A DNA stretch of 64,000 nucleotides from Sulfuricaulis limicola. Lineage in GTDB: Bacteria; Pseudomonadota; Gammaproteobacteria; Acidiferrobacterales; Sulfurifustaceae. Position 1 is the stretch's first letter, and each line of letters starts with the position of its first letter. The translations under genes and the position numbers were made by a program. The stretch covers positions 1,054,001 to 1,118,000 of the forward strand of contig NZ_AP014879.1 in the NCBI RefSeq assembly GCF_002355735.1, written 5' to 3'. Shown here piece after piece: positions 10,941 through 49,782 of the stretch. The notes under the pieces were generated by a model, which was not told the DNA's origin, did not search any database, and was given only the letters and a program-made list of their open reading frames with translations.

Positions 10941-11070
10941 AATCGAATAAACCCGATATCCGGACATTAAGCGCCCACCCGCGTGGCGTGTGACGGCCAC
11001 GCCGGTGCGCGGCGAGCCGCCGTGACTATTCCCTCTGCTGAAACAGGATCAGGGGGGGGGGCTGGCAAGG

Positions 11071-11105
11071 AAAAGGGCTGCGACATGGCAGCCCTTTTGT
11101 TTTTT
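11071..11105 (+). terminator. Strong hairpin terminator at the island edge
   Basis: Perfect 11-bp arms AAAAGGGCTGC / GCAGCCCTTTT with loop GACATG, followed by a T-run (GTTTTTTGG). It can end the lipoprotein transcript on the plus strand and, before the island arrived, the tRNA-Leu transcript from the other side. Confidence 0.8.
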
Positions 11106-11160
11106 GGTACCGAGGGTCGGAATCGAACCGACACGGTGTTGCCACCACCAGATTTTGAGT
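11105..11160 (-). repeat. attL: displaced 3' half of tRNA-Leu
   Basis: These 56 bases are identical to 49696-49751, the 3' half of the intact tRNA-Leu(CAA) up to the anticodon. Outside them the two sites diverge at once. This is the direct repeat left when a tyrosine recombinase integrates into the 3' part of a tRNA gene, so it marks the left boundary of the island. Confidence 0.9.
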
Positions 11161-11903
11161 GGCCCTTAGGAAGTAGGGCGCGTTTACGATCAACCACTTG
11201 CATCGCTTGCCCGCGCCCGAACCCTATTTGAATCTCCGCATCTTCCAATCGCGCCCGGTTCCGCGCTGGCACAAATCTGGCACAGGCGTCTTGTCGCACT
11301 TAGTTCATCATAGGAGCGTGCAGCAAATTCGATTCATCCGACCGCCTTGCCCTTCCTCCTGAGTCACTGGTAACCCAGAGCCCCAGCCACCGCCACCGCG
11401 CTCACGGCCTCGCCGAGCGAAGGGGCTTGGGACCGAGTACTACTAGTGACTAAGGACGCCGTACCACCTTGCCTGAGGTTCCGCGGCACTGTGCCCGTGG
11501 GCATGAAGGGCTGGGCGCGGCCGGGGCCGGGGCCTTGAATTTCGATCCCCACTACCTTGCCAGATGGCTGCGGCCCCAAAACTGCCAGGAATCATACCAG
11601 AGGCCAAGGGTGCTGCCCTGCCCCCGCTTAGTGTAGGATTTCAGGAAAAGCTGTGTAGAGGAGGGGGGACCTGATCGCCTACCCGGATTCAAAACCAGCG
11701 ACACTTTCTGCCGAAGCCTATCCCATCCGGCGACACCTTGTGGTCGGAGGCGCAAATGGCGCCGTATCCTATAAGAGGAAGTAACCGGATGCTAGGGTGA
11801 AAACGTTGTTAACGTCTCCCGCAGCGAGCAACTTAAAAAACGAAGACGATACAAACAAGAATTAGAAAAACCACTTCACTAAAACAGAAGTCATAGAGCC
11901 TAA
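11161..11903. other. Left end of element 1; no gene
   Basis: The first 124 bases (to 11284) closely match 21098-21221, the left end of element 2, and end with the motif TGGCACAAATCTGGCACA at 11267-11284. From 11285 to 11903 I see no supported gene: the short frames there have no ribosome binding sites and unconvincing composition. The final 60 bases are AT-rich and probably hold the promoter for the downstream operon. Confidence 0.6.
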
Positions 11904-20775: not shown

Positions 20776-21035
20776 TGATCGTGGATTTCAAACCCTATCC
20801 AGCGATGAAGGACTCTGGCCTGCCGTGGTTGGGGGAGGTGCCGGAGCACTGGGATATCAAGCGCGCCAAAAACCTGTTCCGTTGCGTCGATGTTCGGTCA
20901 GAAATAGGCGAGCACCTTGTCGAGTACGCCGAGAAGTTGGCGAAACCGCGTGTCGTGGAAACCAGTGGCACAAATCTGGCACAAGAGGAAAACGGTACTG
21001 AAAATCAAAAGGGCCACATCGCTGTAGCCCCTTGA
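20775..21035 (+). pseudogene. hsdS 5' fragment fused to integrase 3' tail
   Basis: The first 40-odd residues (YPAMKDSGLPWLGEVPEHWD, then IKRAKNLF) are the classic start of type I specificity subunits. From EHL near position 20912 the frame continues as EYAEKLAKPRVVETSGTNLA, nearly the same as the C-terminus of the integrase ending at 49655. The junction is in frame. One base difference relative to the intact integrase 3' end removes its stop, so the frame reads through to 21035. It records a deletion that removed the rest of hsdS and most of an integrase gene. No function is expected. Confidence 0.8.
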
Positions 21036-21041
21036 TTGGAT

Positions 21042-21097
21042 TGGTACCGAGGGTCGAAATCGAACCGACACGGGATCGCTCCCACCAAATTTTGAGC
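21042..21097 (-). repeat. Middle att copy: diverged tRNA-Leu 3' half
   Basis: This aligns over its length to 11105-11160 and 49696-49751 but differs in the variable arm and one anticodon-stem base. It still folds as the 3' half of a tRNA-Leu with a CAA loop and TGGGAGCGATCCC variable arm, as if it came from a different host's tRNA. It is preceded by integrase-tail sequence and followed by the same left-end sequence seen after 11160, so it is the junction between two tandem elements. Confidence 0.85.
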
Positions 21098-21844
21098 GGT
21101 CTTCAGGAAGTAGGGCGCGTTTACGATCAACCACTTGTATCGCTTGCTCGCGCCAGAACCCTATTTGAATTACCGCATTTTCCAATCATGCCCGGCGCCA
21201 CGCTGGCACAAATCTGGCACACGCCGGTTTGTTCTTGGCCGAAACGTTTCTCTTCGAAGAACATTTACAATTTCGACACATTATGCCAACCTGTCGACGG
21301 CATCGACAAGTGCCGGAAACGGGTCGATAACTGAGAAAAAGTCATATCGATGAAAGTTTCGACCCAGCCAAGCCTTATGACGCGCTGCCGCCACTGCTTC
21401 CCAACTCGCATATTCTGAACCACGGTCACGATAATCAACCCGTTACGCGCCTAGGCTCCGCGCGTCCGTGACTCAGATGGCCAGGAATGGACGGGGTGGA
21501 CGGGGGCGCGTCACGTTTTGGTCGCGGTGATCGCGACCGGCCGAACGCCTCACCATGTCGCACGCATCGGAATGCCGCTCATGTTCCGTTCGCGGCCTTT
21601 GGCAGTCAGCTCCGCGGTTGGCTTATTCGAATTCATGATTACGCCCATTATCATGAATATTTAAGGGTGCTGAGTATTCAACGTCGCCGAGTGCCACTAG
21701 TGGCCGGTTAGCGCCCGGAATCGTTCGGGAATCTGCTAGTCGTTCGACGATATGGTTCTGAATCAGATCAGTTCCAGCAACCACGAAGGGTGGTGTAAAA
21801 GTGCAAATTGTTAAGAAGCCTACACGTACTCAATAGGCAAACAT
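21098..21844. other. Left end of element 2; no gene
   Basis: Positions 21098-21221 repeat the left end of element 1, including TGGCACAAATCTGGCACA at 21204-21221. Beyond lie the palindromes GAAACGTTTC (21241-21250) and TGTCGA-N5-TCGACA (21292-21308), then the 28-bp palindrome listed separately. I see no supported gene; the short frames lack ribosome binding sites. Confidence 0.6.
21631..21658. promoter_or_regulatory. 28-bp palindromic operator candidate, copy 1
   Basis: ATTCATGATT-ACGCCC-ATTATCATGAAT, with 9-bp perfect outer arms. The same sequence, differing at only 3 of 6 spacer bases, occurs at 30581-30608. It lies about 190 bases before the AlbA_2-like gene, so it may be the binding site of a dimeric repressor shared by both promoters. 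Confidence 0.6.
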
Positions 21845-34587: not shown

Positions 34588-36195
34588 TTGAAGGCGTCTA
34601 TGGGTGAAGTTACCGGTAAAAGAGAAGTCGTAACGCTCGATGGTACACCAGACAAGAGAATGTTCTGGTCGATCATTAGCGATTATGACGTTCAAACTGC
34701 GCTTTGTGAATTGATCGATAACGCAATCGATCAATGGATGGGAACAAAACTCCGGGCGCCTTTAGCTGTTGAGCTGGTCCTTGATGCAGATCGACAACTT
34801 ATTTCAGTTGAAGACAATGCAGGTGGCATAGGTAAGTCAGACTTACGGATGCTAATCGCTCCTGGAAGCAGCAGAAACGATCCATCCGCAGCAACCATCG
34901 GTATATTTGGTGTTGGGAGCAAGCGTGCTGTTGTTGCTCTTGCAGAGAACGTAGTAATCAAGACACATCGAAAAGGAGACAGTACCTTTCAGATTGATGT
35001 AACAAGCGACTGGCTTGAATCCCCGAACTGGGATATACCAGCTTACGAAATACCAAGCATACCTGCCGGTGTTACGTCTATTGATTTATTAGCTCTCCGT
35101 AAAACGTTTTCTGATTCTGATGTTCAAAGTTTGAAACGCCATCTTGGTGAGACATACGCATGGTTTCTTAAACAAAAAGATTGTTCAATTTCTGTTAATG
35201 GCGATGTAATTAAGGCAATAGGTTTTGAGACTTGGGCGTATCCGCCTAGTTTTGAGCCCCAGCGCGCAATCTTTGATGTTGACCTTTCTGGATCTGGAAA
35301 AATCAAAGTCGATATGACCGTAGGTCTAATTAGGGACCGTGACCCCGAAGCAGACAACTACGGGGTATATTTCTACTGCAATCATCGCCTTATTGTTAAA
35401 GAACTCAAAGTTCGGGAAGTGGGATACTTTGTTACGTCGGAGGCAGGTGTTCCACATCCCGACGCGTCACTTTGCCGAGCAATAATCAGATTGGATGGAG
35501 AAGCTAGGCTGATGCCATGGAACAGTAGCAAGACAGGTATCAACTATAGTCATCCGCTCTTTCATGCCATTCGACCTGGGTTGCTCCAGCTCGTTACCCA
35601 GTTTAGTTCGCTCTCTCGTCGTCTTAAGGATGACTGGGAAGAGAAGGTTTTTAAGTTCACCAAAGGCGCAGTCCAACAAGCTGATGAGACCGCGGTTGCT
35701 CAGGGAAAGAAGCTTGTTTTACCTCCTCTGCCAAAAGTAAATAAACCTCATGTTGAATCTCTCAAAGCGAGAAATGAGGGAAAGATTGCAGATCAGCCTT
35801 GGACCCTTGGTTTAGTAGAGGCGGTTGCTGCCGTCACGATCTTGAATCGTCAGAAACTCGAAACCAAAAACCGAATTTCATTGATATTGCTTGATAGCAG
35901 TTTCGAGATTGCGTTAAAAGAATTTGTTGTACATCGCACAGATCTGTTTCCGCCAAAACAGTTCTCGGATACGAAGATTAAACAATTATTCGAACGAAGA
36001 AATGACGTGATTACTGCGGTGACAAGCAAGGTGAACATTCCAAAGAAACTTCTCGACAAGGCCAAGCATTATTATGGGTTGCGCAATAAGTTAATTCATG
36101 AGCGAGCGACGGTTGATGTTACGGACTCAGATGTCGAAAACTACGACAGCACAATTCGCGAAATGTTACATATCCTTTTTGGCCTAGATCTTTGA
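34588..36195 (+). CDS. GHKL ATPase (HATPase) protein
   Basis: A 535-residue protein with an N-terminal GHKL ATPase domain: ALCELIDNAIDQW (N box, near residue 38-50), ISVEDNAGGIGKSDL (G1, near 72-86) and ATIGIFGVGSKRAV (G2, near 100-114). The rest (residues 200-535) has no recognised domain; LKDDWEEKVFKFTKGAVQQA suggests a helical C-terminal half. ATG 34600 is an alternative start. The gene is markedly AT-rich compared with its neighbours. It sits between two hsdR scraps and 187 bases before the methylase operon, so it may belong to that defence system or be a separate insertion. Confidence 0.65.
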   Translation: MKASMGEVTGKREVVTLDGTPDKRMFWSIISDYDVQTALCELIDNAIDQWMGTKLRAPLAVELVLDADRQLISVEDNAGGIGKSDLRMLIAPGSSRNDPSAATIGIFGVGSKRAVVALAENVVIKTHRKGDSTFQIDVTSDWLESPNWDIPAYEIPSIPAGVTSIDLLALRKTFSDSDVQSLKRHLGETYAWFLKQKDCSISVNGDVIKAIGFETWAYPPSFEPQRAIFDVDLSGSGKIKVDMTVGLIRDRDPEADNYGVYFYCNHRLIVKELKVREVGYFVTSEAGVPHPDASLCRAIIRLDGEARLMPWNSSKTGINYSHPLFHAIRPGLLQLVTQFSSLSRRLKDDWEEKVFKFTKGAVQQADETAVAQGKKLVLPPLPKVNKPHVESLKARNEGKIADQPWTLGLVEAVAAVTILNRQKLETKNRISLILLDSSFEIALKEFVVHRTDLFPPKQFSDTKIKQLFERRNDVITAVTSKVNIPKKLLDKAKHYYGLRNKLIHERATVDVTDSDVENYDSTIREMLHILFGLDL

Positions 36196-36274
36196 TAGGA
36201 AAAATGCCGAGCTCTGGCTATAAGCTTCTTCGAATTAAAGAATTAAAGGGTCCAGGCTCAATAAATTGGACATA

Positions 36275-36330
36275 CAACCGCTAGCTGGTCGGGTGGTTTG
36301 CGACCCGGGCAAAGCCAATATCCATGTTCG
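36275..36330 (+). pseudogene. Second hsdR 5' scrap
   Basis: Translating from about 36276 gives LAGRVVCDPGKANIHVRE, matching the same segment of type I HsdR N-termini as the fragment at 34390-34425 (AGWVVCD). The DNA is also similar (GGGTGGTTTGCGAC in both). No start codon or open frame is kept. Confidence 0.45.
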
Positions 36331-36382
36331 CGAGACGTCGTGGACGGCCGCTAAAGAACTAACTTAAAAGACCCATGAATTT

Positions 36383-37057
36383 ATGGACGTGGAGTTGATG
36401 GAAAAGCAGGTCAAATCAAAACAGCGGGTCGCCGACCACGGGGAGGTATTTACTCCCGCGTGGATGGTCGAGGCGATGCTCGACCTCGTCAAGGGCGAGA
36501 CCGAGCGCATTGACTCTCGCTTCCTGGAGCCGGCGTGCGGGAGCGGGAACTTCCTTAAGCGGATCCTGCAGCGTAAGCTCGCCGCCGTCGAACTCAAGTT
36601 CGGAAAGTCCGACTTCGAAAAGCAGCACTACGCCCTTCTCGCGCTGATGTGCTCATACGGGATTGAGCTCTTGCCGGACAACATTGCCGAGTGCCGCGCG
36701 AACATGCTGGAGATTCTCGCCGACTACCTGAAGATCGAGGAGGCGAATGACCTGTATCGAGCCGCTTCCTACGTGCTGTCGCAGAACCTCGTACACGGTG
36801 ACGCTCTGAAGATGCGCGCCAGCGATGGCCAGCCGATCACCTTTGCTGAATGGGGCTACCTCGGGAAGGGGAAGTTCCAGCGTCGCGACTTCCGTTTGGA
36901 CGTGCTGACGGGGGCGTCAGCATATAGCCGGGAGGGCGACCTCTTTACCAACTTGGGCAAGCACGAGATCTTCACGCCGACCAAGACCTACCCGCCGATG
37001 ACGGTACGCCAGCTTGCCTGCGCGGCGATCGGCGATGCCCCGAAGGAAACCGTATGA
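36383..37057 (+). CDS. Adenine-specific DNA methylase, small subunit
   Basis: A 224-residue methyltransferase-like protein with DHGEVFTPAWMVEAMLDLV (FTP motif, near residue 21) and the SAM-binding motif I FLEPACGSGNF (near 46-56), then a GIELLPDNIAECRANML segment. The catalytic NPPY (motif IV) is absent, so it may need the next protein to act. Its stop overlaps the start of that gene (ATGA). ATG 36398 is an alternative start. Confidence 0.75.
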   Translation: MDVELMEKQVKSKQRVADHGEVFTPAWMVEAMLDLVKGETERIDSRFLEPACGSGNFLKRILQRKLAAVELKFGKSDFEKQHYALLALMCSYGIELLPDNIAECRANMLEILADYLKIEEANDLYRAASYVLSQNLVHGDALKMRASDGQPITFAEWGYLGKGKFQRRDFRLDVLTGASAYSREGDLFTNLGKHEIFTPTKTYPPMTVRQLACAAIGDAPKETV

Positions 37058-38671
37058 ACGGCCAGGCAAGCTTTTCACTCCGCGGACGCAACCCGGATGT
37101 ATTGACCTGCATTGCAAACCTTTCGAACGATGAAGTGTTCACGCCCCCCGAGTTCGCCAACAGGATGCTGGATACCCTCGCCGAGGCGTGGGCGGCCGAC
37201 AACAACGGCGCGGATATATGGGCAGACAGTTCGGTGACGTTCCTTGACCCGTGCACGAAGTCGGGCGTGTTCCTCCGTGAGATCACCAGCCGCCTCACCA
37301 AAGGCCTGGCAGCCAAAATTCCGAACCTTGAAGATCGCGTCAATCACATCCTGACCAAGCAGGTGTTCGGTATCGGCATCACGTATCTCACCAGCCTGCT
37401 GGCGCGCCGGAGCGTGTATTGCTCGAAGCATGCCAATGGCCCGCACTCCATTGCCAAGTCCTTCGCCAGCGATGACGGCAACATCTGGTTCGAGCGCACC
37501 GAGCACACGTGGGTCGATGGCAGGTGCGAGTACTGTGGCGCAAGCCAAAAGACCCTCGACCGGGGGGAAGGCCTCGAAACCCACGCGTATGCGTTCATCC
37601 ACACCGACGACATAAAGTCTCGGGTGACCGAGTTGTTAGGAGGCAATATGCAGTTTGACGTAATCATAGGGAACCCACCGTATCAACTAAGCGATGAAGG
37701 CTTTGGAACGAGCGCAGCGCCCATTTATCAGCATTTCGTAGAGCAAGCAAAGGCGTTGGAGCCTCGCTACCTATCGATGATTATTCCTGCCCGTTGGTTC
37801 GCAGGTGGCAAGGGGCTGGATGAGTTTAGGGAGTCCATGCTTAACGACAATCGCCTGCGTTCAATTGACGACTTTCTGAGCGCCTCGGACGTCTTCCCGG
37901 GAGTTGGCCTTAAGGGCGGCGTTTGTTACTTCCTCTGGGAACGGGACAATCCTGGACAGTGCCGCGTTGCCACTCATTTCAAGGACTGGCCTCTCTCTAC
38001 GGCCAGTCGTCCGCTTCTTGAAGAGGGCGCGGACGTGTTCATCCGCTTCAATGAAAGCCTGTCGATTCTCAAGAAAGTAACGGCTGCTGAGAACGACAAT
38101 ACTACCTCACTGTCGCTGCCTGAAAATAAGCGTTTCGATCAACTTGTTAGTTCCAGAAAGCCGTTCGGGCTTGAGACGACGTTCAAGGGCAAGGTCGCCA
38201 AGCGTACTGGTGACGTACTGGTCTATCAGAACGGCGGTACGGGATATGTCGCCAGAAAATCGGTGTCGACTGGCACTGAACTCATCGACAAGTGGAAGAT
38301 TTACGTTGGCCGGGCTGCTCCGGGAACTGGCAACAGAGACACCTATCCGCACAAAATCATCAGCACACCATTCGTCGGGGAGCCGGGTAGCATTTCCTCA
38401 GAGACCTATCTCTGCATCGGCCCGTTCGACTCGAAGAGTGAGGCAGAAAGTGCCTTGTCCTATCTCTGCTGTCGGTTGACGCGTCTCTTGATTCTCCTGC
38501 ATAAGCCATCCCAAGACACCACGCGCAAGGTCTACACTTTCGTACCAACCCAAGAGTGGACGAGGAGATGGACGGATGAGGATCTCTACGCGAAATATGG
38601 CATCACCGTCAGTGAAATCGCGTTCATCGAGAAGGTTATCCGCCCGATGGATCTGAGCGGACCCACTGAGG

Positions 38672-38679
<8 letters not shown>
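37054..38679 (+). CDS. Eco57I-type adenine-specific DNA methyltransferase
   Basis: A 541-residue N6-adenine methyltransferase. NDEVFTPPEFANRMLD begins the core, FLDPCTKSGVFLREI is motif I (near residue 62; the unusual TK replaces GS), and FDVIIGNPPYQL (near 200-212) is the catalytic motif IV. A probable target-recognition part follows (RWFAGGKGLDEFRESML, then LKGGVCYFLWERD). There are two paired cysteines (CEYCG). It is coupled to the small subunit upstream and overlaps the helicase downstream by 8 bases, so methylase and nuclease are made together. Confidence 0.82.
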
Positions 38680-41209
<2,530 letters not shown>

Positions 41210-41246
41210 AAGGTGGGTGCAAATTATCTAGGAGTGACTACCTGCG

Positions 41247-42005
41247 ATGCGTCGACATACTAAGACAACTAGTTTTCCGTTTGATACTTCGATCAATGCT
41301 GCGAGTACTGCGCAATCAGAAACCAAACCTATTATCACAACGGTATTAATTCCGCTGGGTTCATTCTTAGTGGCAGGTCTCGCACTATTAGTACAGGCAG
41401 TGCCCTGGTGGGTTACAGGCATTGTTGTTTTCTATGTTGTCGTCGTCGCACTGGTCGGATTAATACCGGCATCTATACGCACCTATCGCTTATTGCGGAG
41501 TTGGATGCGACAGCGTGCGGTTGCGCACCGATACACACCGTTGATACGCCGTTTTTTAACCACGTTGGTGCCAAATCTTGAGGAGTCACGCGCTGACACC
41601 GTATTTAACGTATGGAAGAGCGCTATCCCGTTGGACCAAGGACGCAACCAAGTGAGACCTGATTACGCACATTTGAGAACGCTGCAGTCGTGGCTTCGTT
41701 CAATTGATTCGCGCCTGGAAGTTGATGGTAGGAGCAATTTTGACCAACTTTGTAGCGAGCTGGCTGAGGTGGTTCTTCAGTACAACAGGTTATGCGAACA
41801 GGCTCATCGTGAGATTGAAGCTATCGTCATTGGTGGTAAAGCTGAAGATCACCAGATTCGATATCTTAAGCAGGAATGGAACAATGCGAGGGATAAACAT
41901 AATCAGACAATCAAAGCATGGGAGGATCTCGCAAAAAATATAAACCATGACGCTGGCGAAAGAATATGCTTCGATCATGGCAGTTTTTTGAAGACGGTTG
42001 GATAA
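41247..42005 (+). CDS. Membrane protein of unknown function
   Basis: A 252-residue protein with two membrane segments (LIPLGSFLVAGLALLVQAV at residues 36-54 and VTGIVVFYVVVVALVGLI at about 58-75), then a basic loop and a 170-residue cytoplasmic part rich in helices. An AGGAG sits about 10 bases before the ATG. It lies 37 bases after the restriction gene but is more AT-rich. Small membrane proteins in defence islands are often effectors, but nothing here proves that. Confidence 0.6.
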   Translation: MRRHTKTTSFPFDTSINAASTAQSETKPIITTVLIPLGSFLVAGLALLVQAVPWWVTGIVVFYVVVVALVGLIPASIRTYRLLRSWMRQRAVAHRYTPLIRRFLTTLVPNLEESRADTVFNVWKSAIPLDQGRNQVRPDYAHLRTLQSWLRSIDSRLEVDGRSNFDQLCSELAEVVLQYNRLCEQAHREIEAIVIGGKAEDHQIRYLKQEWNNARDKHNQTIKAWEDLAKNINHDAGERICFDHGSFLKTVG

Positions 42006-42180
42006 AAAAGCGACAGCGCAATAAATCCAGGCAGCCATCGCTCAGAAATCACTGGAACCGGAGAGGTATTGGCCGAGCTCGATCATCGCAGCTGTGTTTG
42101 CTGTGACCAGAGGACTTGAATAAGTATATCCTATGTGCAATTATTCACACATTAAGTGAAAATATGTACATGGAATATAC

Positions 42181-42996
42181 ATGGAACCCATAGCAGGACT
42201 CGGCAAGGAATCCCGCAAACGCTTGGCAGAGATTATCCGGGGAACACAGGGGACAGTTTCAGTACCCCAGGCCGCGAAAATCCTGAAGCTGCCTTCCAGC
42301 AAGGCGGCCAAGATGCTCGCACGCTGGGCGAAGCAGGGCTGGCTGTCGCGTGTACGGCAGGGTTTGTACGTGCCGGTCCCGCTTGAAGCGCGCACAACCG
42401 ATGTCGCACTTGAAGATCCGTGGCTCATCGCAGAACGGCTTTATTCACCCTGTTACATCGGCGGTTGGACGGCCGCGGAGTATTGGGGGCTGACCGAGCA
42501 GATCTTCCGCACCATCATCGTCCTGACGACACTTAAACCGCGGAACCGCAGACCGAGGATCAGGGGTGTTGAATTCCTGTTGCGTACTATCCCCGCAAAA
42601 TCCCTGTTCGGCACAAAACCTGTGTGGCGCGGGCAAGTAAAGGTCAATGTCGCTGATCCCACGCGGACCATCTTGGACATGCTGGCCGATCCGGCATTGG
42701 GTGGTGGATCGCGCCCGACAGTGGATGTGTTTCGTAACTATATCGGCTCGGATAAGAAGGACACCAGGCTACTGATTGAATATGCGGACCGTCTCGGCAA
42801 TGGCGCCGTGTTCAAGCGGCTTGGGTTTATCGCCGAACGTGTCGCGTCCGGGGAGAAAACACTGATCGAAGCCTGCCGCGCACGCCTGACGCAAGGTAAT
42901 GCCAAGCTCGACCCTTCCTTGCCGGCCGGCAGGCTCGTGAGTGCATGGCGGTTGTGGATACCCGAGAACTGGGCGAAGGCGAAGGGGAGAGCTTAG
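42181..42996 (+). CDS. AbiEi-type antitoxin 3
   Basis: A 271-residue AbiEi antitoxin with an N-terminal winged helix (TVSVPQAAKILKLPSSKAAK, then QGWLSRVRQGLYVPVP) and the AbiEi core WTAAEYWGLTEQIFRTIIVL. Its C-terminal half (YADRLGNGAVFKRLGFIAER) matches the family. It overlaps the toxin start by one base (TAGTG), the usual AbiE layout. The protein neutralises the toxin and represses the operon. Confidence 0.82.
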   Translation: MEPIAGLGKESRKRLAEIIRGTQGTVSVPQAAKILKLPSSKAAKMLARWAKQGWLSRVRQGLYVPVPLEARTTDVALEDPWLIAERLYSPCYIGGWTAAEYWGLTEQIFRTIIVLTTLKPRNRRPRIRGVEFLLRTIPAKSLFGTKPVWRGQVKVNVADPTRTILDMLADPALGGGSRPTVDVFRNYIGSDKKDTRLLIEYADRLGNGAVFKRLGFIAERVASGEKTLIEACRARLTQGNAKLDPSLPAGRLVSAWRLWIPENWAKAKGRA

Positions 42997-44420
42997 TGAT
43001 TACTCGACAGGAGATTGTGGACTTGGCCAGAGAGTTTGGCCTTAATCCCAATGTCGTTGAGAAGGATTACGTCCTCGGTTGGCTGCTCGCCGGTATTTTC
43101 AATCATGCCGCGCTGCAACCGGATTGGGTCTTTAAGGGCGGGACATGTCTGAAGAAGTGTTATTTCGAGACATATCGTTTCTCGGAAGACCTGGATTTCA
43201 CGCTTACCGATGCGGCGCACATCGATCAGCCATTCCTGGTGGCGACGTTTACTCAAGTCGTGCAGTGGATATACGACCACTCCGGCATAGAGTTTCCTGC
43301 GGATGCAATGCGTTTCGAAATTTATGAGAATCCCCGTGGTCGCCGCGCCGTTGAGGGTCGGATAAGTTATCGTGGCCCGATGGGCCGTGGCGGTGATCCG
43401 GCAAGAGTGAAGCTGGATTTAACGGATGACGAGGTGCTGGTCCTGGAACCGGTGATGCGGGAAGTGCACCACCCATACTCGGACAAGCCACCCGAGGGCA
43501 TACATGCCCAATGCTACAGCTACGACGAGGTTTTTGCTGAAAAGATACGCGCATTGGCGGAACGCGAGCGGCCTCGCGATTTATATGATGTGATTCATCT
43601 GTACCGCCACGCCGAATCAAGGCCGGACCGCGTACAGCTACTGCAAACACTCGAACGAAAATGTGAGTTCAAAGGAATTCCCATACCAACGATCGCCAGC
43701 CTGGATAACAAACCTGAACGCGCGGAATTGGAGGCAGAGTGGGCAAATATGCTCGGTCACCAGCTTCCGCAGTTGCCACCGTTCGATCAATTTTGGCGGG
43801 AATTGCCGGAGGTGTTCGACTGGTTACACGGCGCGCCAGAAAAGGCCACGCCTGCGCCAATGCCGGTGGCGGCCGATGTCGATACCACATGGGCGCCGCC
43901 GCCGATGGTGCACGCCTGGCACGCGGCCGTGCCATTGGAAGTGATACGCTTCGCGGCGGCGAACAGGCTGTGCGTTGAGCTTGGCTACGATGGCAGTCGC
44001 CGGCTAATTGAACCTTATTCGCTGCGAAGAACACGAGAGGGAAATCTATTATTGCATGCAGCAAGGCACGAAAGCGGAGAACCGCGGTCTTATCGCGTTG
44101 ATCGGATAGAGAGCGCGACCGCTACGCGGATTTCCTTCGTTCCCAGATATGCGATTGAGCTGACGCCAACAGGGCCGCTCGTCGCACCTCCGAGCGCGCC
44201 GCGGTCATCCAGCTTGAGCGTGTCTAGTTTTGGGCGAAGAGGATTCGGAGGTAGGTCGAAATCCGCCCGCTCCGGATTCGGGCCAACCTACGTTATCGAG
44301 TGCCCATACTGTGAAAAGAAGTTCTCACGTAAGGAGCGCAACACACGCCTAAAGCCGCACAAGGACAAGCACGGTTACCCGTGCCCTGGGCGTACTGGTT
44401 ATCTGGTGGACACGCGGTAA
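42996..44420 (+). CDS. AbiEii-type toxin fused to WYL and zinc-finger domains
   Basis: A 474-residue protein from the GTG that overlaps the antitoxin stop. Residues 1-220 are an AbiEii nucleotidyltransferase toxin: VFKGGTCLKKCYFETYRFSE, then DLDF (near 47-68) and EKIRALAERERPRDLYDVIH (near 175-195). Residues about 305-390 look like a WYL domain (VIRFAAANRLCVELGYDGSR, then RLIEPYSLRRTREG and SYRVDRIESATATRI), and the C-terminus carries a C2H2-like zinc finger (CPYCEKKFSRKERN, then KPHKDKHGYPC). Ordinary AbiEii toxins end after the first part. WYL domains bind ligands in defence regulators, so the fusion could make the toxin respond to a signal. A GAAGGGGAG ribosome site precedes the GTG. An ATG at 42945 would give 491 aa. 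Confidence 0.78.
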   Translation: MITRQEIVDLAREFGLNPNVVEKDYVLGWLLAGIFNHAALQPDWVFKGGTCLKKCYFETYRFSEDLDFTLTDAAHIDQPFLVATFTQVVQWIYDHSGIEFPADAMRFEIYENPRGRRAVEGRISYRGPMGRGGDPARVKLDLTDDEVLVLEPVMREVHHPYSDKPPEGIHAQCYSYDEVFAEKIRALAERERPRDLYDVIHLYRHAESRPDRVQLLQTLERKCEFKGIPIPTIASLDNKPERAELEAEWANMLGHQLPQLPPFDQFWRELPEVFDWLHGAPEKATPAPMPVAADVDTTWAPPPMVHAWHAAVPLEVIRFAAANRLCVELGYDGSRRLIEPYSLRRTREGNLLLHAARHESGEPRSYRVDRIESATATRISFVPRYAIELTPTGPLVAPPSAPRSSSLSVSSFGRRGFGGRSKSARSGFGPTYVIECPYCEKKFSRKERNTRLKPHKDKHGYPCPGRTGYLVDTR

Positions 44421-44769
44421 ACTTCTCCCAGGATCCTGCACGGCCCCTGCAGTATCCCTCGCCTCGAACATGACATGTATTGTGCCGTGCAGAGACCGTA
44501 GATAGGCTCGAGGAGAGATGACCGTCCCGATACGCTAAAGCTGATGGCGCCGCGAGATGGTGAGATAGAAATCCACCGCGGATATCCGAAAGCAGCGCCG
44601 ACGGAGCTCGCGATGGCCAGCCAGGACCACATGTAGGATCGTTACTGTGTTTGAATCAGACGAGAGGACCGGCACGGTAATCCGATTATTCTGTCCGATC
44701 AACCGGTTCGATTCAGCAATGCCGCCGAGTCAGACCGTATAGGCGAAAGAAAAAAATTTGAAAAGCGCG

Positions 44770-44804
44770 GGAGATAAATGATCAAAATGTGCATCTATCT
44801 CCCT
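44770..44804. promoter_or_regulatory. Inverted repeat next to a promoter
   Basis: Arms GGGAGATA (44770-44777) and TATCTCCC (44797-44804) end directly at the -35 box of the predicted promoter, a position where an activator or repressor would act. Confidence 0.45.
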
Positions 44805-44832
44805 TGACGAAAAAATGCATTCATGCAAAATA
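44805..44832 (+). promoter_or_regulatory. Predicted sigma-70 promoter
   Basis: TTGACG (44805-44810), a 16-base spacer and CAAAAT (44827-44832). It would drive transcription across the hairpin-rich noncoding region towards the integrase/ParM genes. Confidence 0.5.
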
Positions 44833-44839
44833 CGCGCGT

Positions 44840-45345
44840 TCAAGTCGCCCTCGCGGGACTTGATCGGAAACAGGACAAGAGACTTCATAGCGTGCGACGC
44901 GTCGTCGCGAAGTAGCTGGGCTGCCTGCCACCTTCGAGCGCAGGAAAACCAGCGTAGTTGGGATGGTAAGAACTTCACTCCATGCGGAGCCGATCTCGCC
45001 ATATCCCGGTAGCGAAGCGCAGTAGAGTGATTGTCAGAGAGAGTGTAAAGCGATTGTCCGGCAGACCGTGCAAGTCCTGTTCGGACCAGGTGCTCAGGCA
45101 CTCGTAGTTTGATGTCGGCACAGGACCGCCACGGTCCAATGCCCAACGCTCCGACAAGGTGGTGATTGCCGGAGTGTAGCGATGTAGGTCGGAACCCGAC
45201 GCGAACGGCCTTTCCCAAAAGCCTTCCGGCGGGTTAACGGTAGACGAGGCGCAGCCTCGTCTCCGAAGCGATGGGGAAGGAAGCAGCGGTCACGCTTGCC
45301 TTCGTTCCCCCATCTCGTCGCCGAGTTTTATCGGCGCGACGAGAA
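44840..45345 (+). ncRNA. Candidate large structured RNA
   Basis: A stretch with no coding frame but many hairpins in series: TCAAGTC...GACTTGA (44841-44864), GTGC-TCAG-GCAC (45091-45102), GGACC-GCCAC-GGTCC (45124-45138), CTCCG...CGGAG (45150-45175), GTCGG-AAC-CCGAC (45189-45201), the 9-bp perfect AGACGAGGC-GCA-GCCTCGTCT (45243-45263), a long imperfect hairpin at 45271-45315, and CTCGTCG...CGACGAG (45315-45344). This density suggests a folded RNA transcribed from the promoter at 44805. I do not recognise a known class. Function is unknown; it could act in element maintenance or regulate the genes after 45888. Confidence 0.5.
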
Positions 45346-45887
45346 GCTCACTGGCGTTCCATGACTTGTTTGCCATGGATTCCTTGCGGTGCCTGCGCAG
45401 GTTTATCGCGCGCCATCCACCGCCGCAAGCCCGCCGGTGCGGTGTTCACAGCACGTTGCGTGCGCTGTGCGCCGTTGTAACGACGTCCGCAATTTCCTGC
45501 CCCGCGGACGTCATTCCAGAAAGATACGAACCGACACGGCGCCCTAAGTCCGCCCTCGGGTGATCTCGATTGCTCGCTTTCCCCTGCGAAAGACCGCGAT
45601 CGTGAGGCGCCAAACCGTGATGCCCGCCGCCGGCCAGGCGGGAGCTCACATCCGGGTCGGTTTCCTGAACACCCCCAGCGATGACGCATTTAATTCACTG
45701 GTGGCGTTAACCACGGACTGCACATCGTGCACCGGGCACCGCCCGGAGTGGCGCGCGGCAGAAATGTCCGCACGCGACTGTCGCTTAACACTCAAGGAAC
45801 GGCCAAGCATTTTGAGCAACCCCAGGGGCGGGATAAACCGAATTGCAATACGGACCTACGCGTACTCATCAGACACGGGAGAACGTC
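45346..45887. other. Noncoding leader before the integrase-like gene
   Basis: About 540 bases without a supported gene. Small frames exist on both strands but lack ribosome binding sites. It probably belongs to the same long leader as the hairpin-rich stretch. The stretch from 44421 to 44769, after the toxin gene, likewise shows no gene. Confidence 0.45.
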
Positions 45888-47015
45888 ATGGAAAAGTTCT
45901 GGATCGAGTTCAACGAGATCTTCAAGCAACACGGCGATGCCGCGGCCCGCAGTGGCAAGCGCATCAGCTTCGGCACGCACCACATCCGGCGCGGGTATTT
46001 GAGGCGCGATTTCCACCTGCTGCGCGGCGGCGGGCTGCTCAGGTTTGAGCACGGCCAGGTGGTGCGCGAACGGCGCTTCAAGCTGGGCTCGCCCTACAAC
46101 CTCAAGGCCAAGCACATCCGGGCCTTGATCGATGACTGGCTGGCGCGCCGCCACTCGCGGTCCTACCTGGAAAACAAGCTGTCCGTGTGGCGCCAGTTCT
46201 GCGCCTGGATCAACAAGCCCAACTTGGTTCCCGGCACCGCGGAGGTGATGTCCTATCCCAACTACCGGCACCGCTCCCAGGTGGCGGTGATCGACAAGAC
46301 CTGGAGCGGGCGCGGGATCGACGTACCCGGGAAGCTCCGCGAGATTGCATCAAGCGATGCGCGCGTGGCCCTGGTCCTGGAGCTCATGCTGACGTTCTCG
46401 CTGCGGCTGAAGGAGGCCTCGCTGCTGCGTCCGCACGCGGCCGACCAGGGCGCGTATCTCGACGTCTGCCGCGGCACCAAGGGCCGTCGCCGGCGCGTGC
46501 ACCCGATCGCCACCGCCGAGGAGCGCGAGGTGCTCGAGCGCGCCAAGGCGCTGGTTGCCGACCGCACCGCATGCCTGGTGCCGAGGGACAAGACCTACAA
46601 GCAGTGGCAGAACCACGTTTACTACGTACTAACCCGACACGGCATCAGTCACAAACAAATCGGTGCTTCCACCCATGGCTTGCGCCACCAGGGGCTCAAC
46701 CGGCTGTACGAACAGATCACCGGCGTCCGGAGCCCGGTTCGCGGCGGGCGGCCGGGCGAGGTGGACCGCGCCACCGACCGTTTCGCGCGCCAACAAGTGG
46801 CCGAAACCGCCGGCCACGGCAAGCGCAGCGTGTCCTCGGCGTACCTGGGCGGGGTGCTGCACGGCAGGCAGCCGTCCGCCGCGATCCCGAATCCACCGTC
46901 CGCATCCGACGACGGCGAGGAGGACGATGGTGCGGATGATGACGATGACGATGAGGCACGACAGCTCGTCGCGGCGCTGCGTGATCGAATCAGTTCGGAT
47001 GAAGCGATTTCCTGA
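45888..47015 (+). CDS. Tyrosine recombinase-like protein (integrase domain)
   Basis: A 375-residue protein of the integrase family found in integrative elements. The catalytic set is visible: R in TFSLRLKEASLL, K in RGTKGRRRR, H-x-x-R in HGLRHQGLNRL, and the H and Tyr of AGHGKRSVSSAYLG. A SAM-like DNA-binding N-terminus precedes. The C-terminal end is acidic (DDGADDDDDDEARQ). I chose the ATG at 45888 after a GGGAGAA ribosome site; an upstream ATG would add 15 residues. It lies directly before a ParM-like gene, which suggests a role in element maintenance rather than the integration into tRNA-Leu. Confidence 0.8.
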   Translation: MEKFWIEFNEIFKQHGDAAARSGKRISFGTHHIRRGYLRRDFHLLRGGGLLRFEHGQVVRERRFKLGSPYNLKAKHIRALIDDWLARRHSRSYLENKLSVWRQFCAWINKPNLVPGTAEVMSYPNYRHRSQVAVIDKTWSGRGIDVPGKLREIASSDARVALVLELMLTFSLRLKEASLLRPHAADQGAYLDVCRGTKGRRRRVHPIATAEEREVLERAKALVADRTACLVPRDKTYKQWQNHVYYVLTRHGISHKQIGASTHGLRHQGLNRLYEQITGVRSPVRGGRPGEVDRATDRFARQQVAETAGHGKRSVSSAYLGGVLHGRQPSAAIPNPPSASDDGEEDDGADDDDDDEARQLVAALRDRISSDEAIS

Positions 47016-47042: not shown

Positions 47043-48032
47043 ATGAAAACCGTCAGAGCCATCGATGTCGGTTACGGCAACACCAAATACGTCGCGTCCC
47101 GTTCCGAACGGGAAATCCAATGCGCGATGTTTCCCTCGCTGGCGCCGGTGGCGTCGCAGCTCGAGCTGTCCACCGGCATGGCCACGACGCGCGACACGGT
47201 CGCGGTGGAGGTCGAGGGCGTCAAGTACGAGGTCGGACCCGGCGCGCGCCTCGGTCTCAAGGCGCACCACGCACGTATCCTGCACGGCGACTACGTCACG
47301 ACGCCCGAGTACCTGGCGCTCGTGCGCGGGGCGCTGTCCTGCATGCAGCTGAGCCACGTCGACCTGCTGGTGGTGGGCCTGCCGGTCGGCCTCATGAACA
47401 GCAAGGCCCGGGCGCTGGCGGCGCGGCTAAAGGGGCGGCACCCCGTCGGCAACGGACGCGAGGTCGAGGTGCGGCACGTCTGGACCCTGGCTCAGCCGCT
47501 CGGCGGATTTCTCGATTACGCGACGCGCCTGGGGACCTACGAGATGCTGGCGGAGCAGGTGAATCTGATCATCGATCCCGGCTATTACACCGTCGACTGG
47601 CTGACCGGCCTGGGGCTCAAGGCCATGCCCGAGCGCACGGGCAGTTTCGCCGGCGGGACCCACGCCGTCCTGCAGACCATCGCGCGCGGCGTGAGCGAGC
47701 AGCTCGGCGTCGCGTACACGGATCTCGACGCCATCGACCGCGCTCTGCCCCGGAACCGGCTCACGATCGGCGAGCGCGTGATCGACCTCGCGCCCCATGG
47801 CTGGCCCGCCCAGGCGCGCGTCAACGAAGCGGTAAACGCCATCGCCAACTCTGTCGGTGATGCGCTCGACGTCCACAACATCATCCTCGTGGGCGGCGGC
47901 GCGCGCTTCTACGAGGCCGCCATCCGCCGGCGCTTCCCGGCGCCGCGTTTGATCGTGGCCCCGGATCCGATCTTCGCCAACGTGCGCGGATTCCAGATCG
48001 CGGGCGAACACCACGCCTCGATGGCGGCTTAG
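47043..48032 (+). CDS. ParM/StbA-like actin-family protein
   Basis: A 329-residue actin-like ATPase as used for plasmid partition. Phosphate loop 1 is AIDVGYGNTKYV, phosphate loop 2 is LIIDPGYYTVDWL (near residue 176), and the adenosine motif is IILVGGGARFYEAAI (near 280). ParM proteins polymerise to push plasmid copies apart with a DNA-binding partner; the small gene following by 10 bases is a candidate. Its presence suggests the element had, or has, an extrachromosomal phase. Confidence 0.82.
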   Translation: MKTVRAIDVGYGNTKYVASRSEREIQCAMFPSLAPVASQLELSTGMATTRDTVAVEVEGVKYEVGPGARLGLKAHHARILHGDYVTTPEYLALVRGALSCMQLSHVDLLVVGLPVGLMNSKARALAARLKGRHPVGNGREVEVRHVWTLAQPLGGFLDYATRLGTYEMLAEQVNLIIDPGYYTVDWLTGLGLKAMPERTGSFAGGTHAVLQTIARGVSEQLGVAYTDLDAIDRALPRNRLTIGERVIDLAPHGWPAQARVNEAVNAIANSVGDALDVHNIILVGGGARFYEAAIRRRFPAPRLIVAPDPIFANVRGFQIAGEHHASMAA

Positions 48033-48702: not shown

Positions 48703-49655
48703 ATCGCACCAAGGCCCAGGAGTACCACGACCGGCTCAGGGTCGAGCTATGGCGGGTCAGCAAGCTCGGCGACAAGCCGCGCCGCACCTGGCAACAGGCC
48801 GTGGCGCGGTATCTCAGAGAGGTCGCGCACAAGGCGGGCTACGAGGAGGACAACCGTCAAACCAAGTGGCTCGATAAGTATTGGCGCGACAATTATCTCG
48901 ATGAGATCACGCGGGAGGCGGTCGAGCAGGTCAAGGCGGCCAAGCTCAGTACCGGCGTGGCCAATGCGACCTGCAACCGGATGTTGGCGGTCGTGCGCGC
49001 CATTCTGCGCAAGGCCGCCTACGACTGGGAGTGGATAGACCGGATACCCAAGGTCCGCCTGCTTCCGGAGCCGAAACGGCGCATCCGGTTCATCACGCGC
49101 GAGGAGGCGGCGCAGCTCCTAGCTGTACTGCCGAAGCACCTGGCGGAAGTGGTGCGATTCAGCCTGGCCACCGGGCTGCGCAAGCGCAACGTCACCGACC
49201 TGCAGTGGTCGCAGGTGGACCTGGAACGGCGCTGCGCCTGGGTACATCCGGACCAGGCCAAGGCCAGAAAGGCCATTGCCGTGCCGCTGAACGCCGAAGC
49301 GATGTTGGTTTTACGGCGACAGCAGGGCAAGCATCCGGTCTATGTATTCTGTTACCGGAAGCATGCGCCGCTAAGCTGTGTCAATGGAGGGACATGGCGC
49401 GAGGCGGTGAAGCGGGTCGGGCTGGCGGACTTCCGCTGGCACGACCTGCGGCACACCTGGGCCTCGTGGCATGTGCAACAGGGAACGCCGCTGCACGCGT
49501 TGCAGGAGTTGGGCGGCTGGGAGACGGCGGAGATGGTTCGGCGTTACGCTCATCTCGCGCCGGAGCATCTCGCGGAGTATGCCGAGAAGCTCGCCAAGCC
49601 GCGTGTGGTGGACGGCAGTGGCACAAATCTGGCACAAGCGGAAAAACGGACCTGA
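48609..49655 (+). CDS. int: Tyrosine integrase of the island
   Basis: A 348-residue tyrosine recombinase that would integrate and excise element 2 at tRNA-Leu. The core-binding domain precedes residue 150; the catalytic residues are R in TGLRKRNVTDLQW, H-x-x-R in HDLRHTWASWH, and the W and Tyr of GGWETAEMVRRYAHL. The start ATG follows an excellent AGGAGGTG site, 33 codons inside a longer open frame. Its 3' end contains TGGCACAAATCTGGCACA, also found at the left ends of the elements, and lies only 41 bases from the att core. The remnant at 20912-21000 is the tail of a sister integrase. Confidence 0.9.
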   Translation: MSLYRRSKNGVWWVRFTAPDGRRIRQTTGTVDRTKAQEYHDRLRVELWRVSKLGDKPRRTWQQAVARYLREVAHKAGYEEDNRQTKWLDKYWRDNYLDEITREAVEQVKAAKLSTGVANATCNRMLAVVRAILRKAAYDWEWIDRIPKVRLLPEPKRRIRFITREEAAQLLAVLPKHLAEVVRFSLATGLRKRNVTDLQWSQVDLERRCAWVHPDQAKARKAIAVPLNAEAMLVLRRQQGKHPVYVFCYRKHAPLSCVNGGTWREAVKRVGLADFRWHDLRHTWASWHVQQGTPLHALQELGGWETAEMVRRYAHLAPEHLAEYAEKLAKPRVVDGSGTNLAQAEKRT

Positions 49656-49695
49656 AAATCAAAAGGGCCACGTCGTCGTAGCCCCTTGATTGGAT

Positions 49696-49782
49696 TGGTA
49701 CCGAGGGTCGGAATCGAACCGACACGGTGTTGCCACCACCAGATTTTGAGTCTGGCGCGTCTACCAGTTCCGCCACCCCGGC
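49696..49782 (-). tRNA. tRNA-Leu (anticodon CAA), attB/attR site
   Basis: On the minus strand it is a complete class II tRNA: acceptor GCCGGGG/CCTCGGT, D arm GGCGGAACTGGTAGACGC, anticodon stem CCAGA/TCTGG with loop CTCAAAA (anticodon CAA), a variable arm TGGTGGCAACACC, T arm GTCGGTTCGATTCCGAC and an encoded CCA. It decodes UUG. The last 56 bases are repeated at the far left of the island, so the element supplied the 3' half and the gene stays functional. Confidence 0.95.

What the first reader, a model, noticed from the sequence alone, without database searches (positions are those of the whole stretch)
44770..45345. Hairpin-dense noncoding region with its own promoter
Eight or more stable hairpins in about 500 bases, a promoter with an adjacent inverted repeat and no coding frame suggest a large structured RNA, placed before the recombinase/ParM genes of a mobile element. 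I do not recognise its class.
Basis: partly seen in the sequence, partly recalled or inferred. Interest (0 to 1): 0.65.

Follow-up and report, generated by a model that had tools for sequence, protein, structure and literature searches.

The report
Structured noncoding region beside plasmid-type recombinase
A one-kilobase stretch with no gene in front of a DNA-cutting enzyme gene occupies a place that related mobile elements also fill with folded, gene-free sequence, which may be made into a large RNA not yet described, although that is not shown for this copy.

Summary
The gap is real. Window 44421-45887 is noncoding, lies before a tyrosine recombinase (45888-47015, catalytic residues intact) and a PRTRC_D actin-like ParM gene (47043-48032), and folds better than shuffles (z -4.2). 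But its hairpin count (8-9) is at chance level, the excess stability sits mainly in two patches (44769-44803 and about 45225-45520), and the promoter match is also at chance level.

No Rfam family matches. The stronger evidence comes from relatives of the recombinase. In 19 of 19 chosen Burkholderiaceae plasmids, PRTRC_D and the recombinase diverge around a 1.06-1.99 kb gap. In two groups that do not align with each other the region holds 9 and 13 strongly covarying stems, against 0.4 and 1.1 in tree-based nulls and 0 in the recombinase genes as controls. A 27-nt inverted repeat at 44773-44799 recurs at the same distance before all three recombinase copies of a same-family genome.

So a structured noncoding partner of this recombinase family is well supported as a class. 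That it is RNA is favoured in one group, undecided in another and untested in the window, whose own sequence has no alignable homologue here. Best reading: a large structured leader or noncoding RNA of the recombinase (0.45). Main rival: a folded DNA site (0.33).

The parts
44421..45887 (+). whole noncoding region between the AbiEii-WYL gene and the recombinase; the unit to which the finding belongs
   Evidence: ORF and Pfam results; same position is a gap without annotated gene in most relatives looked at
44769..44803 (.). inverted repeat GGGAGATAAATG..CATCTATCTCCC; its 27-nt core 44773-44799 (GATARAY-N11-GCATCTATC) is shared with three recombinase loci of a same-family genome; probable operator or first hairpin
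   Evidence: fold -14.3 kcal/mol, z -4.7
44804..44831 (+). promoter-like TTGACG-16-CAAAAT (weak; chance level)
45238..45263 (+). hairpin GACGAGGC-GCA-GCCTCGTC
   Evidence: -14.9 kcal/mol
45271..45310 (+). hairpin GGGGAAGGAAG..CTTCGTTCCCC
   Evidence: -22.7 kcal/mol
45310..45346 (+). hairpin TCTCGTCGCCGA..TCGGCGCGACGAGA
   Evidence: -18.7 kcal/mol
   Evidence: -16.9 kcal/mol
45888..47015 (+). tyrosine recombinase (relatives are annotated 'integrase domain-containing protein'); R173, K198, H263, R266, H310, Y319 invariant (catalytic roles recalled)
47043..48032 (+). PRTRC system protein D, actin-like ParM relative
   Evidence: TIGR03739 306.7 bits against cut-off 214.8; ALP_N, MreB-like_C

Best explanation
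The region is the noncoding half of a recombinase module: a 1.1-1.5 kb structured noncoding region followed by a plasmid-type tyrosine recombinase, here with PRTRC_D behind it, on a genomic island at tRNA-Leu. Most likely it is transcribed towards the recombinase from a promoter beside the GATAGATG-type inverted repeat, and the transcript folds into a large RNA that serves the recombinase in cis, as a control leader or as an RNA partner. Shown: the gap, its place in relatives, covarying stems in two relative groups with weaker signs in a third, and the shared inverted repeat. Inferred: transcription, strand, operator role and function.
For: Position is conserved: 19 of 19 chosen Burkholderiaceae plasmid loci have PRTRC_D and the recombinase diverging around 1.06-1.99 kb, also pMOL28 and Methylophaga. 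Of 46 other loci searched with the window's PRTRC_D, 13 match and all 13 matches lie upstream on the opposite strand (some loci are cut short). Indels are mostly not multiples of three (remainder 1:2:0 is 474:149:85 in A, 205:69:57 in B; recombinase controls 63 of 63 and 2 of 2 are multiples of three). Strand-neutral stems with >=3 covarying pairs: group A 9 against null mean 0.4 (max 1 in 16 nulls), group B 13 against 1.1 (max 4), recombinase controls 0 and 0. Group C, from the window's family: 38 two-sided pairs on + against a null of 17.8. An 86-position group A domain has 90.6% of cells paired and a covariation score of 0.267; 0 of 500 shuffles reach either. In group A stems G-T exceeds A-C by cells, 80:49, and 118:28 at stem ends. 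The inverted repeat gave 5 matches in 369 genomes: the window, the three same-family recombinase loci, and one place with no recombinase or PRTRC_D within the 16 kb fetched. Window z -4.16.
Against: No homologue of the window's own stretch aligns and the group A domain model does not match it (best 5.0 bits with filters off). An all-pairs covariation test on group A gave 0 of 378,015 column pairs with E<1 (count). Group C's consensus fold is no better than its null in energy (-401.8 against -423.0). In the group A domain, pairs with two-sided change are only modestly raised (8 against 5.2, 14 of 500 shuffles reach it) and further pair types are not (304 of 500). Group A's G-T excess is not significant by pairs (38:25, p 0.13), group B shows none (76:70 cells) and a second strand test is not significant in A, B or C. 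Hairpin count and promoter are at chance level; no promoter match in the L054 gap or most of the L034 gap. No expression data.
Confidence: 0.45

Rival explanations
1. A DNA-level site: palindromes bound by the recombinase or a regulator, or a folded single-stranded site (a recombination or resolution site, or a single-strand promoter of the Frpo/ssi kind used when a plasmid enters a recipient). The stems covary because the DNA arms must stay complementary.
For: Group B stems show no G-T over A-C bias. Inverted repeats of conserved letters and variable loop, CGTCACTA..TAGTGACG, recur in this gap in several groups that do not align. The partner is a recombinase with all catalytic residues. On the plasmids a Lar restriction-alleviation gene lies nearby in 14 of 19 loci, and SSB and a primase- or toprim-like gene in 2 of the 3 loci fetched with wider flanks, which recalls leading regions (passages of PMC11541004).
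Against: Group A stems prefer G-T over A-C by cells. The group A core folds as a branched structure over hundreds of bases. The gap is 1.1-2 kb, whereas that paper searched regulatory regions of 50-350 bp. The GTCACTA..TAGTGAC pattern is absent from the window genome and from its same-family relative.
Confidence: 0.33
2. Long regulatory or decaying DNA: in this island the module is rearranged (ParM downstream instead of divergent) and the gap folds well mainly because it holds an operator palindrome and three or four good hairpins.
For: Hairpin number at chance level, stability mostly in two patches; no aligned homologue; different gene order from relatives.
Against: Overall z -4.16; four hairpins each at z -3.4 to -4.6, though these were picked for being good; shared inverted repeat at the same distance; recombinase intact.
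Confidence: 0.15
3. A centromere-like site (parC) for PRTRC_D, beside which no ParR was recognised.
For: PRTRC_D is the neighbour in the window and in 13 of 46 other loci.
Against: No iterated direct repeats in the gap: only two families of two 13-nt copies. A gap persists in relatives that have a repM gene or a second recombinase in that place.
Confidence: 0.05

Closest known systems
PRTRC_D / recombinase modules of Burkholderiaceae plasmids (e.g. pMOL28, pBcn842-1)
   Same: same two proteins and a large gap without annotated gene before the recombinase
   Different: PRTRC_D is divergent there and downstream here; gap sequences do not align and the group A domain model does not match the window
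Large structured bacterial RNAs (GOLLD, ROOL, OLE, HEARO; names and traits recalled)
   Same: several hundred bases, multi-stem, often on mobile elements
   Different: no Rfam match at gathering or relaxed thresholds; tied to a tyrosine recombinase
Frpo/ssi single-strand promoters
   Same: structured plasmid DNA near SSB and anti-restriction genes
   Different: longer; the -35/-10 match in the window follows the hairpin instead of lying in it; island not shown to be conjugative
attC and other folded recombination sites; cer with its Rcd RNA (recalled)
   Same: structured site linked to a tyrosine recombinase
   Different: no core site was identified in the window (not systematically searched); far longer
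IS110 bridge RNA (recalled)
   Same: noncoding RNA beside a DNA recombinase
   Different: IS110 enzymes are not tyrosine recombinases of the phage-integrase fold

Membership tests
PRTRC_D (TIGR03739) | score above curated cut-off | tested here: met
   306.7 bits against 214.8
Tyrosine recombinase | R-K-HxxR-H-Y catalytic set | tested here: met
   invariant in the 10 aligned sequences, window included; the Pfam phage-integrase score itself, 23.2, is below its cut-off of 27.1
Any Rfam 15 family | match at gathering score | tested here: not met
   window: two tRNAs only; gap at relaxed threshold: one match at E 2.1
Group A structured domain (model R1) | covariance-model match | tested here: not met
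   none at default, best 5.0 bits with filters off
Structured RNA | compensatory changes in homologues of this sequence | not testable with these tools
   no alignable homologue found
Structured RNA | transcription | not testable with these tools
   no expression data held
ParM centromere (parC) | iterated direct repeats | tested here: not met
Frpo/ssi promoter | -35 and -10 inside the folded single strand | tested here: inconclusive
   the promoter match lies after the hairpin; similarity to known Frpo not searched
IS110 bridge RNA system | IS110 transposase | tested here: not met
   protein matches phage integrase and XerC models

The most novel reading that the evidence does not exclude
A family of tyrosine recombinases works with a large RNA encoded directly in front of it: the folded transcript binds the recombinase and directs or licenses its recombination, an RNA-partnered tyrosine recombinase spread over plasmids and islands of Pseudomonadota.
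Probability: 0.08. Interest if true: 0.9.

Novelty: new variant of a known kind. Interest (0 to 1): 0.5.

Why it matters
A covarying, Rfam-unknown structured region sits at a fixed place beside one recombinase family on plasmids and islands in many genera. If it is RNA it is a new large RNA class with an obvious partner protein; if it is DNA it is a new kind of large folded site for a tyrosine recombinase. Either way the aligned groups give concrete stems to mutate in laboratory strains.

Tried and rejected
DNA searches with the gap in plasmids, phages and 185 genomes of the class: only the window itself. Sequence profiles of the groups against the window: the group A core found nothing in the gap; the group C profile's best place in the gap was the inverted repeat, at E 5, and the group A profile's one good match was in the ParM gene. 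All-pairs covariation test: no significant pair. Group A domain model in the window and 15 genomes: nothing. Viral contigs: no relative with the recombinase or ParM alone, two with an alignment (L129 has divergent PRTRC_D, L128 is cut off upstream). The inverted-repeat pattern in viral contigs gave 50 loci, none with a recombinase or ParM match in the DNA fetched. The G-T/A-C test on pairs common to both strands was not significant in any group. I rejected a known Rfam RNA, a hidden protein gene, and parC. Literature: seven searches, some with capped lists and without most subscription journals, listed no paper that I could recognise as describing this region; only passages of PMC11541004 were read, the rest were listings.

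Dropped or limited before counts: L065 from the group A alignments (longer gap with a hypothetical gene), L052 from group B (near copy of L051), L037 from the Rfam scan, alignment columns with over 50% gaps. In L072 I cut the gap at 2408 although the annotated recombinase starts at 2520. The 19 Burkholderiaceae loci were picked by me from the best 40 of 154 plasmid records; PLSDB gene tables are incomplete, and in the DNA search with one gap 3 of 39 matching records list a hypothetical protein under the match, 1 has no annotation and 35 list nothing. The structure tested was drawn by me after looking at the alignment.

Full report
WHAT IS THERE. The stretch 44770-45345 is part of a longer noncoding region, 44421-45887, between an AbiEii-WYL gene (42945-44420) and a tyrosine recombinase (45888-47015) followed by a ParM-like gene (47043-48032), a small ORF, an HTH_17 gene and a second, typical phage integrase next to tRNA-Leu. 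The ParM-like protein is PRTRC system protein D, 306.7 bits against a cut-off of 214.8. Four ORFs inside the region match no Pfam family, and the longest of them, 162 aa on the minus strand, has no plasmid match.

HOW UNUSUAL IS THE FOLD. The 576 nt fold at z -4.16 on the plus and -3.66 on the minus strand. The number of stable hairpins is not unusual: 8 at or below -10 kcal/mol against a shuffle mean of 7.4, reached by 23 of 60 shuffles. In 150-nt windows the excess lies at 44700-44849 (z -4.9), which holds the inverted repeat, and at 45225-45524, with a weaker plus-strand value of -2.5 at 45525-45674; the stretch between is near chance. Four separate hairpins and the inverted repeat, picked as the best, fold at z -3.4 to -4.7 each. 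The promoter match next to the inverted repeat is one where 0.7 are expected, and there is no terminator-like site (1.8 expected). GC content is 58% in the gap and in the window as a whole.

NOT A KNOWN RNA. Rfam 15 finds only two tRNAs in the window, one match at E 2.1 in the region at a relaxed threshold, and nothing in the gaps of two relatives. In 15 relative loci the only matches were an ALIL element, three tRNAs and an antisense RNA match overlapping a tRNA.

RELATIVES OF THE RECOMBINASE. The recombinase has relatives of about 24-42% identity: matches in 35 of 369 genomes of the class and 21 of 398 of the phylum sample, the window's own genome counted in both and some genomes shared, in 154 plasmid records and two viral contigs. 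I looked at 19 Burkholderiaceae plasmids: in 19 of 19 PRTRC_D and the recombinase diverge around a gap of 1061-1987 nt, with no annotated gene in 18 and one hypothetical gene in the last, L065. pMOL28 and a Methylophaga plasmid are alike. In an Acinetobacter plasmid the opposite gene is repM, with a gap of 1.2 kb. Of 46 other loci examined by tblastn, 13 show a PRTRC_D match, all 13 upstream and on the opposite strand; the window alone has it downstream on the same strand. In two of three copies of a same-family genome the opposite gene looks like another tyrosine recombinase (E 1e-10 to 1e-12, below the models' cut-offs). So the gap travels with the recombinase more than with ParM.

COVARIATION. 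The gaps fall into groups that do not align with each other or with the window. Group A is 18 plasmid loci (20 with one genome locus and pMOL28), group B 10 genome loci, group C three copies in a genome of the window's family. Indels in A and B are mostly not multiples of three, while those of the recombinase genes are. In sliding alifold windows on group A, two-sided pairs exceed 60 tree-based nulls at z 4.7 or more in 8 of 8 plus-strand windows and at z 5.1 or more in 5 of 8 minus-strand windows. On a strand-neutral definition, stems with at least three covarying pairs number 9 in A against a null mean of 0.4, and 13 in B against 1.1; the recombinase genes give 0 in both (16 nulls each). Group C has 38 two-sided pairs on the plus strand against 17.8 and 32 on the minus against 18.1, but its fold energy is no better than the null. 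One branched 86-position domain of A has 19 pairs, 90.6% of cells paired and a covariation score no shuffle reached, while the number of pairs with two-sided change (8 against 5.2) was reached by 14 of 500 shuffles and the number of pair types by 304; its model finds two plasmid loci left out of its training, at 73.5 and 64.6 bits, and a weak third at 21.5. Against this, an all-pairs test found no single significant pair, and the A recombinase control in the energy-based test is itself raised on the plus strand (z 3.7 for two-sided pairs).

RNA OR DNA. If the kept structure is RNA, G-T should outnumber A-C in kept stems. In A it does by cells (80:49 in stems, 118:28 at stem ends; by pairs 38:25, p 0.13), in B it does not (76:70 and 56:57; by pairs 56:41, p 0.15), and C is too small. 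On pairs predicted from both strands the difference is not significant in any group. RNA is therefore favoured in A and undecided in B. For the window it rests on analogy.

THE LINK TO THE WINDOW. The 27-nt inverted repeat GATARAY-N11-GCATCTATC at 44773-44799 starts 1115 nt before the recombinase start codon. In the three recombinase copies of the same-family genome the same pattern starts 1285-1313 nt before the aligned core of the recombinase, which begins at about residue 58-64; the same measure in the window is about 1286-1304. In 369 genomes the pattern occurs five times: these four places and one at the end of a gene I read as pilU from its translation, with no recombinase or PRTRC_D match in 16 kb around it. 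The pattern was made from these four places, so only its rarity elsewhere is a test. It suggests a shared operator or first hairpin and supports homology of the region.

MECHANISM. I think most likely that a transcript starts beside the inverted repeat, runs towards the recombinase with no terminator-like site on the way, folds, and serves the recombinase in cis. Transcription, strand and function are inferred. A folded DNA site for the recombinase is the main rival. The neighbours on the plasmids (Lar in 14 of 19 loci; SSB and a primase- or toprim-like gene in 2 of 3 with wider flanks) recall leading regions with single-strand promoters (passages of PMC11541004), but the length and the place of the promoter match fit poorly.

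SETTING. Repeats of the tRNA-Leu end at about 11.1, 21.0 and 49.7 kb suggest two tandem islands; the finding lies in the second, with Schlafen-type, AbiE and Eco57I-type restriction genes.

VERDICT. A real, conserved, structured noncoding class beside this recombinase family is well supported.

Noticed in passing
window 11052-11287, 20910-21224, 49563-49782: Three repeats of the tRNA-Leu end, two of them with the integrase 3' end: probably two genomic islands in tandem at tRNA-Leu.
   Followed up: partly
L046, L048, L051, L002, L103, L104, L108, L118 and others, 0.3-1.5 kb before the recombinase match: Inverted repeat CGTCACTA..TAGTGACG or variants with conserved arms and loops of 3 to about 50 nt in groups that do not align, nine copies in one genome; possible recombinase or operator site.
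   Followed up: partly
L051 3400-6000 (minus strand): Palindrome TTACANTGTAA occurs three times around a gene pair that looks ParD/ParE-like by eye and a second copy of the CGTCACTA block, like a cassette between repeated sites.
   Followed up: no
group B alignment: Conserved AAAGGAGGTG, close to the complement of the 16S rRNA 3' end (recalled), in the gap; in four loci followed by a four-codon ORF (MKPH or MKPP).
   Followed up: no
L054 4705-4819 and the same place in group A: By eye, hairpins with compensating changes and a terminator-like hairpin with a T run upstream of the large domain, like a separate small RNA (the terminator scan is at chance level in L054).
   Followed up: partly
window 34588-44420: Island cargo: HATPase gene, Eco57I-type methylase and helicase with a T5orf172 domain, AbiEi/AbiEii with a WYL domain.
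   Followed up: partly
L034 5995-7125, L035 6183-7298: Two same-family copies have a divergent gene resembling a second tyrosine recombinase in the place of PRTRC_D.
   Followed up: partly
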